Assembly (NCBI RefSeq): GCF_000613905.1
Contig: NZ_BAJW01000015.1
Span: 1-57,998, forward strand
Length of the DNA stretch: 57,998 nt
Reading direction: 5' to 3'
DNA from: Acetobacter persici JCM 25330
GTDB taxonomy: Bacteria > Pseudomonadota > Alphaproteobacteria > Acetobacterales > Acetobacteraceae
Each line of letters begins with the position of its first letter. Position 1 is the stretch's first letter. The notes below the pieces were generated by a model. That model saw nothing but the letters and a program-made list of their open reading frames with translations. It had not been told where the DNA came from and searched no databases. This document shows positions 52,688-56,450 of this stretch, piece by piece. A program made the translations under genes and the position numbers.

Positions 52688-54082
52688 TCAGGATTTGTTG
52701 CCGCTCATGCTCGCCCCGGCCTGTGGGGACAGGCAGGCTGCCGCAGGCACCGCCAGCATGGAGATACTGCCCACGACCAGAAAGGCGATTGAGAAATCAT
52801 GCAGGGTGGGGGTGGCGTGCCGGAACAGAATATGGGTGAGGGTGAGGGTGCCCGCGGCCGTGCAGATCCCCACAGACAGCATAAGCTGTTGCAGGGTTGA
52901 ATAAAGGCTGGTGGCCGCACTCATCCGCTGCTTGGAAATATCCGCGTAGGCAATGGTGTTATAGGCGGAAAACTGCGTGCTTTGCGCCATGCCCGCGGCA
53001 AACAGAATGAGAGAGAGTGTCCATAACGGCTGGCCTTTCTGAAAAGCGGCAATCAGCGCGAACAGAATGGCCGCGGAAAACCCGTTGGCCATCAGCACGC
53101 GCCGGAACCCCCAGCGCGCAAGTGTGGCAGGCACAAAGGGGCGCATGACAATCGCGCCAAGCGGCGCAATGAACGTGATGGCGCCGCTCTGGGCTGCCGT
53201 CAGGCCCGAGCCAATCTGCAGGAAGGTCGGGAACAGAAACGGCAGTGAACCGACGGCCACACGTGATGCCGCGCCGCCCGCGACGGAAATGGCGAAGGTG
53301 GGTACCCGAAACAGGCTGAAATCAAGCAGGGGTGCCGCCGTGCGCACGGCGTGCAGGCTGTAAAGCCCCATCAGGCTGCTGCCCCCCACCAACATGCCCA
53401 GAACCAGCATGCCGCCGCCCTCACCGTGGCTGAAGAGTTCCGCCGCGATGGACAGAACGGCCAGCCCACCCCCCACCAGCGCCATGCCCCGCAGGTCAAA
53501 CGGTGCCGGATCAGGCGTGCGGGTGTTGGGGATAAAGCGGCGCGTGAGCAGCAGGCCGACAATGCCCACCGGAATGTTGAGGTAGAAGTTCCAGCGCCAG
53601 GACAGATAGGTGGTGATGAAGCCGCCCACCACAGGCCCCATCAGCGGGCCGAGGGTGGCGGGCAGCATCATCCACGTCATGGTGCGCACCAGATCCTCCC
53701 GCGCCGTGCCCCGCAGCACGACCAGCCGCCCTACCGGCACCATCAGCGCGCCGCCAATGCCCTGCAATGCGCGCATACAAGCCAGAAATATAAGGCTGGT
53801 GGCTGTCGCGCACAGCACCGAGCAGGTGACAAAGATGATGATGGCCCCCGTCAGCACGGTGCGGCTGCCCAGCCTGTCCGCCAGAGCGCCGGAAGCGGGG
53901 ATAAATATGGCCAGGCCTATGATGTAGGAGGTCAGCGCCACGGAGGTCGCGACCGTATCAACATGCAGGCTGTGGGCAATGGAGGGCAGGGCGGTGGCCA
54001 GAATGGTGCCATCCAGTTGTTCCATGAAAAACATGGAGGCGACGATAAGGGCGATCAGATGAGGGCGGCTGATAAACGGCAT
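52688..54082 (-). CDS. MFS multidrug exporter, DHA2 (EmrB/QacA-like) family
   Basis: This 464-residue inner-membrane proton antiporter has about 14 helices. FFMEQLDGTILATALPSIA is the TM1 DHA2 motif, ADRLGSRTVL the loop 2-3 motif A, and LPATLGPLMGPVVGGFI the motif C that marks antiporters. No EmrA-like adaptor is adjacent. It is read in the same direction as the MdtA gene, 251 bases upstream of it, and may be a separate unit. The substrate is unknown. Confidence 0.88.
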   Translation of the reverse strand: MPFISRPHLIALIVASMFFMEQLDGTILATALPSIAHSLHVDTVATSVALTSYIIGLAIFIPASGALADRLGSRTVLTGAIIIFVTCSVLCATATSLIFLACMRALQGIGGALMVPVGRLVVLRGTAREDLVRTMTWMMLPATLGPLMGPVVGGFITTYLSWRWNFYLNIPVGIVGLLLTRRFIPNTRTPDPAPFDLRGMALVGGGLAVLSIAAELFSHGEGGGMLVLGMLVGGSSLMGLYSLHAVRTAAPLLDFSLFRVPTFAISVAGGAASRVAVGSLPFLFPTFLQIGSGLTAAQSGAITFIAPLGAIVMRPFVPATLARWGFRRVLMANGFSAAILFALIAAFQKGQPLWTLSLILFAAGMAQSTQFSAYNTIAYADISKQRMSAATSLYSTLQQLMLSVGICTAAGTLTLTHILFRHATPTLHDFSIAFLVVGSISMLAVPAAACLSPQAGASMSGNKS

Positions 54083-54195
54083 GCTAGCCAGAGACGTGTT
54101 TTTGCGGTCTGATGCAACAGAAGACCGTGCTCAAACGCTATATTTGTGGCGACCGCACTCTGGGTACGGAACGGTCTTAAATAAGGAGAAAAACG

Positions 54196-54501
54196 ATGGC
54201 TGACGATAAACTCAAAAACCTCGGCACAAAACTTGAAGGCGTGGCTGATGAAGCCAAGGGCCGCGTGAAAGATGCCGCTGGTGGTCTGACGGGTGATCTG
54301 GGGCTACAGGCCGAAGGAAAGATCGATCAGCTTTCCGGAATGGCCCAGCAGGAATTTGCTGACCTGTATGAGGAAGGTGAGGGTGTGGTGGAAAAAGCCG
54401 TGACCTTTGTGCGGGATAAGCCCTTGCTTTCACTGGGTATTGTGACGTTTGTCGGGGTGCTGATCGGCTGGCTGGTGTTCCCGCGTTCCAAGCGCTCCTG
54501 A
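54196..54501 (+). CDS. CsbD-like protein with C-terminal membrane anchor
   Basis: This 101-residue protein begins with a CsbD-like domain (KLEGVADEAKGRVKDAAG and QAEGKIDQLSGMAQQ) and ends in one membrane segment (PLLSLGIVTFVGVLIGWLVF) and a basic tail. CsbD proteins are stress-induced in other bacteria; the tail anchor recalls the DUF883-like protein at 41869-42105. A strong AAGGAG ribosome-binding site lies upstream. It diverges from the DHA2 exporter. Confidence 0.8.
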   Translation: MADDKLKNLGTKLEGVADEAKGRVKDAAGGLTGDLGLQAEGKIDQLSGMAQQEFADLYEEGEGVVEKAVTFVRDKPLLSLGIVTFVGVLIGWLVFPRSKRS

Positions 54502-54508
54502 TAAATCA

Positions 54509-54542
54509 TTTTCACCGGGACTCTTGCGCGTTCCGGTGAAAA
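54509..54542 (+). terminator. Hairpin after the CsbD-like gene
   Basis: TTTTCACCGG (54509-54518) pairs perfectly with CCGGTGAAAA (54533-54542), with three more outer pairs after one bulged base. A pyrimidine tract TTCTCCTCTTTCT follows. It is a likely terminator, with a loop that contains a GACTC (CcrM-type) site. Confidence 0.55.
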
Positions 54543-54601
54543 GTGATTCTCCTCTTTCTACGGAGTCGCAATTGGTGCGACTCGGTTATTTTAACCGAGT
54601 C
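54519..54601 (+). promoter_or_regulatory. Cluster of five GANTC sites upstream of rnhB-ccrM
   Basis: GANTC, the target of CcrM methylase, occurs at 54519 (GACTC), 54545 (GATTC), 54563 (GAGTC), 54579 (GACTC) and 54597 (GAGTC), five times in 83 bases against about one per 256 in random sequence. The last three also form two competing hairpins: GAGTCGCA/TGCGACTC (54563-54583) and GACTCGGTTA/TAACCGAGTC (54579-54601). The second ends 26 bases before rnhB. In Caulobacter, GANTC sites in the ccrM promoter region adjust its transcription; the same here is inferred. Confidence 0.65.
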
Positions 54602-54627
54602 CTGCCAAATGAGTGGAAAGAGGGGTC

Positions 54628-55257
54628 ATGCCGGATTTTACACGGGAGCAGCAACACGGCGGGCGCGTCGCCGGTGTTGATGAAGTCGGGCGTGGCCCGC
54701 TGGCTGGTCCCGTGGTGGCTGCTGCTGTCGTCTTTGGTGCGGGTGTGCCGGACGACCTTGCGGCCGTTATTGATGATTCCAAAAAACTGAAGCCTGCTGT
54801 GCGTGAGGCCATTGCGGCCCGCCTGCCGGATGTGCCCGGAATTGAAATTGGTCTGGGTGCTGCGTCTGCTTCCGAAATTGATACGCTCAACATCCATCAC
54901 GCTGCCCATCTGGCCATGCAGCGCGCTGTGGCGCGCCTGCCGGGCCTGCCGGATTATGTGCTGGTGGATGGCAACAAGCTGCCGTCCTTCGGGTGTCGTG
55001 CGGAGGCTCTTGTGGGCGGGGACGCGCTCAGCCTTTCCATTGCAGCAGCATCAATCATGGCCAAAGTCGTGCGGGACCGCATTATGGCGCGTCTGGACGT
55101 GCGCTGGCCCGCTTATGGCTGGGACCGCAATTCCGGTTACGGCACCGTAGTGCATCGCGCGGCGCTGAGCAGCGCGGGCGTCACCCCGCATCATCGTAAA
55201 ACATTCGGCACAGTGCGCCGGCAAATTGAACATCTTGCTATGGAGGGCCGGGCATGA
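54628..55257 (+). CDS. rnhB: Ribonuclease HII
   Basis: This 209-residue enzyme removes ribonucleotides and RNA primers from DNA-RNA hybrids. The start is ATG 54628 with GAGGGG upstream; an in-frame GTG at 54613 is less likely. The acidic catalytic pair is D18-E19 in [13 protein letters not shown], a further Asp lies in VLVDGNKLP, and the segment [13 protein letters not shown] follows. Overlap with the methylase gene by ATGA implies coupled expression. The rnhB-ccrM pairing is common in alphaproteobacteria. Confidence 0.94.
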
Positions 55258-56450
55258 GCGGCGCAAAATCAATCAGTATGGAACTTCCTCTTGATCAGAT
55301 TCTGCGTGGCGAATGCGTGGAAACCATGCGCGGCCTGCCGTCCGGTTCTGTGGACTGCGTGTTTGCAGACCCGCCATACAACCTCCAGTTGCGTGGGGAA
55401 CTGCGTCGCCCGGATGATTCCCTCGTGGACGGCGTGGATGATGACTGGGACAAGTTTTCCGATCTGGCCGAATATGACCGCTTTACCCGTGCATGGCTGA
55501 CGGAAGCGCGCCGCGTCCTGCATAAGGATGGCACCATCTGGGTGATTGGTTCCTACCACAATATTTTCCGCATCGGTGCGATTTTGCAGGATCTGGGATT
55601 CTGGATTCTGAATGATATTGTCTGGCGGAAATCCAACCCGATGCCCAATTTCCGTGGTCGCCGCTTTACCAACGCGCATGAAACCATGATCTGGGCCGCA
55701 CGGAGCGAAGACAGCCGCTACCGCTTCAACTATCAGGCCATGAAGGCTCTGAATGATGATGTGCAGATGCGCTCCGACTGGTATCTGCCGCTCTGCACCG
55801 GCAATGAGCGCCTGCGCAATGAACATGGCCTGAAGCTGCACCCCACCCAGAAGCCGGAAAGCCTGCTGCACCGCGTTCTGCTGGCCTCCACATCCGTTGA
55901 TGATGTTGTGCTCGACCCCTTTACCGGCACGGGCACGACGCCTGCGATGGCCAAGCGCCTGCGCCGCCGCTTTATCGGCATTGAGCGCCACCCGGATTAT
56001 GTGGAGGCGGCTCTGGGCCGCGTAGCGCGGGAAGAGCCTCTGCCGGATGATGCCGTTATGACCACGCTGGACAAGCGCGAGGCACCGCGTGTGCCGTTTG
56101 GCAGTCTGGTAGAGCAGGGGCTGCTCTCCGCTGGTGTTGTGCTGGCCGACAAGAAGCAGCGCGTGCAGGCAACGGTTTCTCCTGATGGCACGCTGGTCAG
56201 CGGGGATAAGCGCGGCTCCATTCACAAAATGGGCGCGATGCTGACCAATGCTCCGTCCTGCAATGGCTGGACTTTCTGGCATTTTGAGCGTGATGGCGTC
56301 TGGCTGCCGCTGGATGTGCTGCGGCAGGAAGTCTGGTGCAGTCTGGCCGTGGCGCCAGCAACGTCATTTCTGTCTGAAGACTCTGAACGCACTGGGGCCG
56401 GGCCGGTTACGGCTCTGCCCCGGTCTTGTTGCAAGAGAATGAGGTTATAA
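55254..56450 (+). CDS. ccrM: CcrM-type adenine DNA methyltransferase (GANTC)
   Basis: This solitary methylase is cell-cycle linked in alphaproteobacteria. The catalytic DPPY is at residues 39-42 ([13 protein letters not shown]) and the SAM-binding DPFTGTGTT comes later, the beta-class order. A C-terminal domain with [12 protein letters not shown] matches CcrM. As read, the protein has 398 residues, but the last 30 look unlike the family. Restoring one C at about 56333 gives [19 protein letters not shown] with a stop at 56375-56377 and seems more natural. This is probably another homopolymer error but cannot be proven here. Confidence 0.92.

What the first reader, a model, noticed from the sequence alone, without database searches (positions are those of the whole stretch)
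54519..54601. Five CcrM target sites packed upstream of the ccrM operon itself
GANTC occurs five times in 83 bases, spaced 26, 18, 16 and 18 bases apart, in the region from which rnhB-ccrM should be transcribed. Random expectation is well under one. CcrM methylates GANTC, and in Caulobacter methylation of GANTC in the ccrM promoter region and the regulator GcrA link methylation to transcription. Here the density is high enough to suggest a strong feedback switch that also controls the coupled RNase HII. The regular 16-18 base spacing of the last four may place sites at fixed positions for a protein array.
Basis: partly seen in the sequence, partly recalled or inferred. Interest (0 to 1): 0.7.

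Follow-up and report, generated by a model that had tools for sequence, protein, structure and literature searches.

The report
Methylase operon's own methylation-site cluster
The start of an operon that makes a bacterium's DNA-marking enzyme is packed with that enzyme's own target sites, and many relatives keep such a cluster where the enzyme's operon begins, which suggests, without proving it, that the enzyme controls its own supply.

Summary
Five GANTC sites lie at 54519-54601, before an rnhB-ccrM pair in a genome close to Acetobacter; the window is otherwise poor in GANTC (83 against 227 in shuffles). The cluster is conserved: 44 of 48 same-genus genomes hold 4-9 sites in the 200 bases before rnhB. 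It tends to follow the start of ccrM's transcription unit. Where rnhB and ccrM touch or overlap, 56 of 66 distinct loci have three or more sites before rnhB and 1 of 66 has two before ccrM. Where a gap of 10 bases or more separates them, 2 of 113 have three before rnhB and 69 of 113 have two or more before ccrM; 34 have neither. Of 88 ccrM loci from other alphaproteobacterial families, 52 have three or more. About a third of these 88 have a GANTC at a fixed place in the -35/-10 spacer. This supports methylation-linked autoregulation; no methylation or expression data exist here. Sites 4 and 5 also form the arms of a leader hairpin largely confined to the genus. A protein array has no independent support.

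The parts
54519..54523 (+). GANTC site 1 (GACTC), directly before the conserved TTGC
   Evidence: GANTC-TTGC in 45 of 48 genus loci
54545..54549 (+). GANTC site 2 (GATTC), kept in part of the genus only
   Evidence: 13 of 48 genus loci
54563..54567 (+). GANTC site 3 ('a', GAGTC; GAATC in 6 of 43 relatives)
   Evidence: GA and TC invariant in 43 aligned sequences
54579..54583 (+). GANTC site 4 ('b', GACTC), 5' arm of the main hairpin
   Evidence: 43 of 43
54597..54601 (+). GANTC site 5 ('c', GAGTC), 3' arm of the main hairpin
   Evidence: 43 of 43
54519..54529 (+). conserved block GACTCTTGCGC, perhaps part of the rnhB-ccrM promoter (inferred; the sigma-70 consensus scan found none)
   Evidence: alignments of 30 and 43 sequences; scan
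54572..54608 (+). main hairpin b:c in the leader (arms 54572-54587 and 54593-54608, loop 54588-54592)
   Evidence: z -7.36 for 54543-54632; pair counts in 43 sequences
54563..54583 (+). alternative hairpin a:b, mutually exclusive with b:c, followed by a T-rich stretch (terminator-like by pattern only)
54551..54623 (+). outer stem (54551-54561 with 54613-54623) that overlaps the likely ribosome-binding site GAGGGG at 54620-54625; weak outside the window's nearest relatives
54505..54547 (.). upstream inverted repeat (TTTTCACCGG...CCGGTGAAAA) around site 1 and TTGCGC
54196..54501 (+). CsbD-like small protein gene upstream
   Evidence: Pfam PF05532
54628..55257 (+). rnhB, ribonuclease HII, first gene of the pair
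   Evidence: Pfam PF01351, NCBIfam NF000595 above its cut-off
55254..56450 (+). ccrM, adenine DNA methyltransferase with RAMA domain
   Evidence: Pfam PF01555 and PF18755; solved CcrM 6pbd, E 6.4e-148

Best explanation
The cluster is the methylation-sensing control region of the ccrM transcription unit. CcrM methylates GANTC sites in and just behind its own promoter. After replication passes, these sites are hemimethylated and the promoter changes state; newly made CcrM remethylates them and returns it, so enzyme output follows the cell's methylation debt. In many other Alphaproteobacteria the sites sit before ccrM itself, in about a third of an even sample with one or two of them inside the -35/-10 spacer. 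In acetic acid bacteria, where rnhB and ccrM overlap, they sit before rnhB, so RNase HII comes under the same control. Shown here: the cluster, its conservation, its change of place with the operon start, and the spacer pattern. Inferred: methylation of these sites, the direction of the effect, and what reads the marks (GcrA is a candidate). In Acetobacter the leader RNA can also form a hairpin from two of the sites, which probably adds control of translation or mRNA stability.
For: Genus: 44 of 48 loci have 4-9 GANTC in the 200 bases before rnhB; per 50 bases 0.00 from -500 to -250, then 0.10, 0.44, 1.08, 1.48, 1.98 up to the start codon and 0.06 after it. GANTC is the commonest of all 256 XYNZW words before rnhB in the genus (239; mean word 36.75) and before ccrM in the class sample (259; mean 67.4). 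Place (identical loci removed): gap under 10 bases, n=66, rnhB side three or more in 56, ccrM side two or more in 1; gap 10 or more, n=113, rnhB side three or more in 2, ccrM side two or more in 69 and three or more in 43. Class sample: 52 of 88 have three or more before ccrM, 1.19 and 1.15 per 50 bases next to the gene against 0.02-0.05 at -400 to -250. Spacer: of 108 TTGAC anchors chosen without regard to GANTC downstream (TTGACTC left out), 50 have GANTC at offset 8 and 67 at offset 19; of 237 TTGAC elsewhere in the named loci none does. The middle base at offset 8 is free (A23 G12 T9 C6). In 9 of 48 genus loci a TTGAC stands 3 or 4 bases before a GANTC. GANTC between -10 and -35 marks a timed group of promoters in Caulobacter (PMC4287350, passages).
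Against: No methylation, transcription or binding data for any locus. Of 113 loci with a gap, 34 have fewer than two sites on either side; of 66 without, 10 have fewer than three before rnhB. 15 of 88 class loci have none before ccrM. Three genus loci have none (G185, G186, G187: 2.9, 1.5 and 1.7 Mb). The spacer pattern is commoner in the named loci nearest the query (both sites in 33 of 49 anchors) than in the even class sample (20 of 60 anchors, of 88 loci); with exact spacings it is in 13 of 88. The offset-19 site is in 0 of 48 genus and 0 of 91 other family rnhB regions, and the window's promoter is unmapped. Site number is the same with and without a detected GcrA (40 of 68 and 12 of 20 with three or more). 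gcrA of this assembly lies in two frames. CtrA is reported to act at the ccrM promoter of S. meliloti and to bind that of Brucella (PMC4433202, PMC2877005, passages); CtrA sites were not searched here.
Confidence: 0.65

Rival explanations
1. RNA first: the sequence is conserved as a structured mRNA leader that controls translation of rnhB-ccrM, and GANTC sites come in pairs because a self-complementary word in one stem arm brings one in the other.
For: The leader folds far better than shuffles (z -7.36; genus mean z -4.45, 33 of 44 below -3). Main hairpin in 43 sequences: 88.9% of cells paired against 28-41% when slid, 55 double-change cells against 23.9 in shuffles, 0 of 500. 43 of 48 genus loci have an uninterrupted stem of 8 or more pairs holding a GANTC pair. 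G-U outnumber A-C cells 34 to 2 in the window clade. The outer stem overlaps the likely ribosome-binding site.
Against: The two measures less sensitive to relatedness do not exceed shuffles (pairs with a double change 6 against 5.1, 171 of 500; further pair types 17 against 16.4, 233 of 500; similar). The 34 G-U cells sit mostly in three pairs, and in the second clade the ratio is 13 to 8. In other Alphaproteobacteria the cluster remains while folding is ordinary: mean z -0.97, 3 of 93 below -3. Sites 1 and 3 are conserved outside the main stem, and the GANTC pairs never vary in 43 sequences while flanking pairs do. The outer stem is weak in the 30-sequence alignment (74.2% against 49-67% slid; pair types below shuffles).
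Confidence: 0.12
2. CcrM acts by occupancy: many target sites recruit the enzyme to its own promoter, where it blocks RNA polymerase, so that binding and not the methyl mark does the work.
For: GANTC inside the presumed core promoter in part of the class; up to 9 sites at one locus; no link of site number to a detected GcrA.
Against: No test here separates binding from methylation.
Confidence: 0.1
3. The sites are operators of another DNA-binding protein, or core promoter letters that merely contain GANTC.
For: Site 1 lies beside the conserved TTGC; in the class pattern the second GANTC ends on the first base of a presumed -10 hexamer. In Agrobacterium some GANTC adenines may simply be core promoter bases (PMC11514494, passages). 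Proteins such as MucR can sit on GANTC sites and keep CcrM away (PMC5172544, passages).
Against: The free middle base at offset 8, different flanks between lineages and GANTC being the top word of 256 fit a constraint on GANTC itself. At offset 19 the middle base leans to C (49 of 67), which fits less well.
Confidence: 0.12
4. Chance or composition.
For: None found.
Confidence: 0.01

Closest known systems
Caulobacter crescentus ccrM promoter and leader (two GANTC in the leader; recalled from Stephens et al. 1995, nothing of it seen here)
   Same: CcrM target sites at the ccrM promoter, proposed to link methylation to shut-off (recalled)
   Different: Here 4-9 sites, before rnhB instead of ccrM, two of them in a leader hairpin.
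Methylation-linked promoters of Caulobacter: ctrA P1 and podJ P2 (PMC4287350, passages) and ftsN (PMC3885167, passages)
   Same: GANTC close to the core promoter (-28/-29 and -24 in the first two); in ftsN a GANTC mutation lowered promoter activity
   Different: 11 of 96 timed start sites had more than one site within 50 bases upstream (PMC4287350); the layout is not established in Acetobacter, and GcrA binding is untested
GANTC-rich repABC promoters of Rhizobiales (PMC11514494, passages)
   Same: Several GANTC in one promoter region, single sites tested there by mutation
   Different: Controls replicon maintenance genes, not the methyltransferase
Synthetic CcrM memory circuits (PMC5458116 and PMC12496179, search listings only)
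   Same: CcrM expression governed by methylation of a control region
   Different: Engineered, with a synthetic zinc finger repressor; here a natural region
Structured leaders that mask the ribosome-binding site (general class, recalled)
   Same: Outer stem overlaps the likely ribosome-binding site in the window
   Different: No Rfam match above threshold in 54100-54900; no ligand or regulator known

Membership tests
CcrM (GANTC adenine methyltransferase) | N6/N4 methylase domain followed by RAMA domain | tested here: met
   PF01555 E 9.5e-64 and PF18755 E 1e-16
CcrM (GANTC adenine methyltransferase) | Full-length similarity to the solved CcrM | tested here: met
   6pbd chain A, residues 13-361 of 398, E 6.4e-148. 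NCBIfam NF050803 matches with 631 bits, below its cut-off of 830
CcrM (GANTC adenine methyltransferase) | Methylates GANTC in this organism | not testable with these tools
   Only indirect: GANTC depleted in the window (83 against 227), as reported for CcrM-bearing Alphaproteobacteria (PMC3973325, passages)
GcrA-dependent methylation-sensing promoter | GANTC between -35 and -10 | tested here: inconclusive
   Pattern present in about a third of the even class sample; in the genus TTGAC-N3/4-GANTC in 9 of 48 and the offset-19 site in 0 of 48; no sigma-70 site found by scan
GcrA-dependent methylation-sensing promoter | GcrA encoded in the genome | tested here: inconclusive
   48 of 49 same-genus genomes, but two frames in this assembly; six close relatives have one unbroken match
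GcrA-dependent methylation-sensing promoter | Site number goes with the presence of GcrA across species | tested here: not met
   40 of 68 with and 12 of 20 without detected GcrA have three or more sites; missed divergent GcrA is possible
GcrA-dependent methylation-sensing promoter | Output changes with methylation | not testable with these tools
   needs a bench experiment
Regulatory mRNA leader | Conserved structure with compensatory changes | tested here: inconclusive
   Cells paired, double-change cells and covariation score exceed all 500 shuffles, but pairs with a double change and further pair types do not; outer stem weak
Regulatory mRNA leader | Match to a known Rfam family | tested here: not met
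   Four chance-level matches, all below gathering scores, none covering the main hairpin
Transcription attenuator | Terminator hairpin with T run and a competing hairpin | tested here: inconclusive
   One terminator-like pattern at 54563-54583, against 0.7 expected in shuffles

The most novel reading that the evidence does not exclude
A self-sensing element of ccrM that moves with its operon: many Alphaproteobacteria place GANTC sites, often two of them one helical turn apart (11 bases), inside the sigma-70 spacer of the ccrM promoter with further sites around it, and the cluster moves to whichever gene heads the ccrM operon. In Acetobacter the same letters serve twice, as methylation sites in DNA and as the two arms of a leader RNA hairpin, so that one sequence carries a DNA-methylation switch and an RNA switch for the methyltransferase and RNase HII.
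Probability: 0.35. Interest if true: 0.75.

Novelty: new variant of a known kind. Interest (0 to 1): 0.6.

Why it matters
How CcrM levels are set outside a few model species is little tested. A site cluster that recurs across the class and changes place with the ccrM operon makes methylation feedback testable in many species with simple site changes. It would explain why RNase HII shares this control in acetic acid bacteria, and it offers a case where a DNA methylation motif may also be constrained as RNA structure.

Tried and rejected
Chance or composition: rejected. A known RNA family: none above threshold in 54100-54900. A sigma-70 promoter by consensus scan: none in 54080-54700. GcrA as obligatory reader: no association in the class sample. 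DNA cruciform or dimer operator in place of RNA: the G-U to A-C ratio (34 to 2) speaks against it in the window clade, hardly in the second clade (13 to 8). Literature: no paper with ccrM and rnhB, one unrelated paper with GANTC and Acetobacter, no passage found on a GANTC cluster at ccrM of acetic acid bacteria (nine searches). The library lacks most subscription papers, so absence is weak.

110 loci of other genera of the family were examined, of 146 such genomes with a match; rnhB was located in 91 of the 110. The class sample is 88 loci of the 115 matched genomes outside the family, the strongest matches. Start codons were assigned by script; for two genus loci (L060, L156) no start codon was found at the place, and some large negative gaps are probably start misassignments. 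L158 was left out of the alignments as identical; L005, L155, L156 and L157 because they lack the cluster. Folding z-scores rest on 30 shuffles each. Related species are not independent, so shuffle counts overstate significance.

Full report
OBSERVATION. GANTC is rare in this window (83 against 227 in shuffles), in line with the published depletion in CcrM-bearing Alphaproteobacteria (PMC3973325, passages seen). The stretch between the csbD-like gene and rnhB would hold 0.8 sites by its dinucleotide composition; 2 of 5000 shuffles reached five. In 400 kb taken from two other same-genus genomes no 100-base stretch held more than three.

GENES AND ORGANISM. The closest named loci are from Acetobacter (A. 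cibinongensis, A. suratthaniensis, A. fallax), so I take the genus to be Acetobacter. Downstream lie rnhB (54628-55257) and ccrM (55254-56450), overlapping by four bases, so no promoter fits between them, though one inside rnhB is not excluded. The methyltransferase has methylase and RAMA domains and aligns over residues 13-361 with a solved CcrM (6pbd, E 6.4e-148).

CONSERVATION IN THE GENUS. Of 49 genomes, 48 have an rnhB match. In the 200 bases before it 44 of 48 hold four to nine GANTC, one holds two and three hold none. Per 50 bases the density is 0.00 from -500 to -250, then 0.10, 0.44, 1.08, 1.48 and 1.98, and 0.06 after the start codon; a single site at +100 to +150 (1.0 per locus, 31 loci) is the GATTCC that codes for Asp-Ser in rnhB (letters). 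In 43 aligned sequences the GA and TC letters of sites 3, 4 and 5 are invariant. Site 1, before TTGC, is in 45 of 48 and site 2 in 13 of 48. In the 44 loci that have sites 1, 3, 4 and 5, site 1 to 3 is 43 or 44 in all, 3 to 4 is 16 in 43 and 4 to 5 is 18 in all, even where extra sites split these into 7+9 and 8+10.

THE CLUSTER TENDS TO FOLLOW THE START OF THE ccrM UNIT. With identical loci removed, 66 loci have rnhB and ccrM overlapping or less than 10 bases apart: 56 have three or more sites before rnhB and one has two or more before ccrM. With a gap of 10 bases or more there are 113 loci: 2 have three or more before rnhB, 69 have two or more and 43 three or more before ccrM, and 34 have fewer than two on either side (the same with repeats, where means for gaps 10-40, 40-80 and 80-400 are 1.08, 1.58 and 2.55 before ccrM and 0.50, 0.77 and 0.47 before rnhB). 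Most of the gapped loci with few sites are other Acetobacteraceae: 19 of 52 of these have two or more before ccrM, against 50 of 61 named loci. In an even sample of other alphaproteobacterial families, 62 of 88 ccrM loci have two or more and 52 three or more sites in the 200 bases before ccrM; the profile is 1.19 and 1.15 per 50 bases next to the gene, 0.02-0.05 at -400 to -250, 0.34 and 0.17 in the first 100 bases of the gene and 0.03-0.06 in the next 100; 15 have none. GANTC is the commonest of the 256 XYNZW words in both sets.

A SPACER PATTERN IN PART OF THE CLASS. Placing 146 distinct upstream regions on TTGAC shows GANTC at offsets 8 and 19. With anchors picked without regard to GANTC downstream (TTGACTC left out), 50 of 108 have it at offset 8, 67 of 108 at offset 19 and 53 of 108 hold both a site at 7-9 and one at 19; of 237 TTGAC elsewhere in the named loci none has either offset 8 or 19. 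The letters at 23-28 (C-A-T-N-N-T) look like a -10 hexamer 17 bases from TTGACN. The pattern is commoner in the named loci (both sites in 33 of 49 anchors) than in the even sample (20 of 60 anchors, 88 loci); with exact spacings it is in 13 of 88. The middle base is free at offset 8 (A23 G12 T9 C6) and leans to C at offset 19 (49 of 67). In the genus, TTGAC-N3/4-GANTC is in 9 of 48 and the offset-19 site in none; the window's own leader shows neither, and no start site is known.

THE HAIRPIN. Sites 4 and 5 are the arms of a hairpin at 54572-54608; the 90 bases 54543-54632 fold with -42.4 kcal/mol, z -7.36. In 43 sequences 88.9% of cells pair, against 28-41% when slid, with 55 double-change cells against 23.9 in shuffles (0 of 500). 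But the number of pairs with a double change (6 against 5.1) and of further pair types (17 against 16.4) does not exceed shuffles, and these are the measures least inflated by relatedness, so the covariation is suggestive, not proof (similar for 30 sequences). An uninterrupted stem of 8 or more pairs holding a GANTC pair is in 43 of 48 genus loci, 4 of 26 other family loci with three or more sites, and 11 of 93 other alphaproteobacterial loci. In the window's clade there are 34 G-U against 2 A-C cells, in the second clade 13 against 8. The outer stem over the likely ribosome-binding site is weak in the 30-sequence alignment. Site 3 can pair with site 4 instead. Mean folding z is -4.45 for 44 genus loci (33 below -3), -1.72 for 26 other family loci with three or more sites (6 below -3) and -0.97 for 93 other alphaproteobacterial loci with three or more sites (3 below -3), about the same as for 55 with fewer (-0.92). 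The cluster is thus wider than the hairpin.

MECHANISM. The best-supported reading is methylation-linked autoregulation of the ccrM unit, with RNase HII included where the operon begins at rnhB. The change of place with the operon start is the main argument; it is a tendency, not a rule. The direction of the effect and the reader of the marks are not shown. GcrA is encoded in 48 of 49 genus genomes, but site number does not differ between class genomes with and without a detected GcrA. In this assembly gcrA lies in two reading frames, a sequencing error or a real break; six close relatives have one unbroken match. CtrA is reported at ccrM promoters of other Alphaproteobacteria (PMC2877005, PMC4433202, passages) and was not tested here. 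That two GANTC in the Caulobacter ccrM leader are linked to shut-off is recalled, not read.

NOVELTY. Methylation sites at a ccrM promoter are a known kind (recalled for Caulobacter). The dense conserved cluster, its change of place with the operon, the paired spacer sites and the possible double use as DNA mark and RNA stem were not found in nine searches, but most subscription literature is not held.

Noticed in passing
L353 (own genome, contig C227:16300-17500): The gcrA match of the window's own assembly lies in two reading frames, while six close relatives have one unbroken match; assembly error or real break not settled.
   Followed up: partly
L111 and L124: Records titled Mycobacterium sp. 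KBS0706 and a Solirubrobacteraceae MAG carry a ccrM like those of Alphaproteobacteria with four GANTC before it, which suggests mislabelled or mixed records.
   Followed up: no
54505-54547: A second inverted repeat surrounds site 1 and the TTGCGC; in some relatives (L040, L044, L059) it is built from other letters, with extra GANTC in its arms.
   Followed up: partly
54775-54779: The GANTC inside rnhB recurs in relatives (1.0 per locus in 31 genus loci); here it codes for the Asp-Ser of a DSKK stretch.
   Followed up: partly
ccrM upstream regions of L080-L141 and L264-L351: A further GANTC, usually GATTC, followed by an A-rich stretch lies 15 bases before TTGAC in 33 of 107 anchored regions.
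   Followed up: no
genus loci L051-L057, before site 1: TTGACCGGGACTC puts site 1 at the same distance from TTGAC as the first spacer site of the class pattern (letters; 9 of 48 genus loci fit TTGAC-N3/4-GANTC).
   Followed up: partly
L145, L147, L151-L154, farther upstream: A short GACTC-N5-GAGTC hairpin lies beside T-rich stretches, perhaps the end of the upstream transcript.
   Followed up: no
own genome contig C177:2611-3372: A second, distant adenine methylase-like frame (33% identity to CcrM).
   Followed up: no
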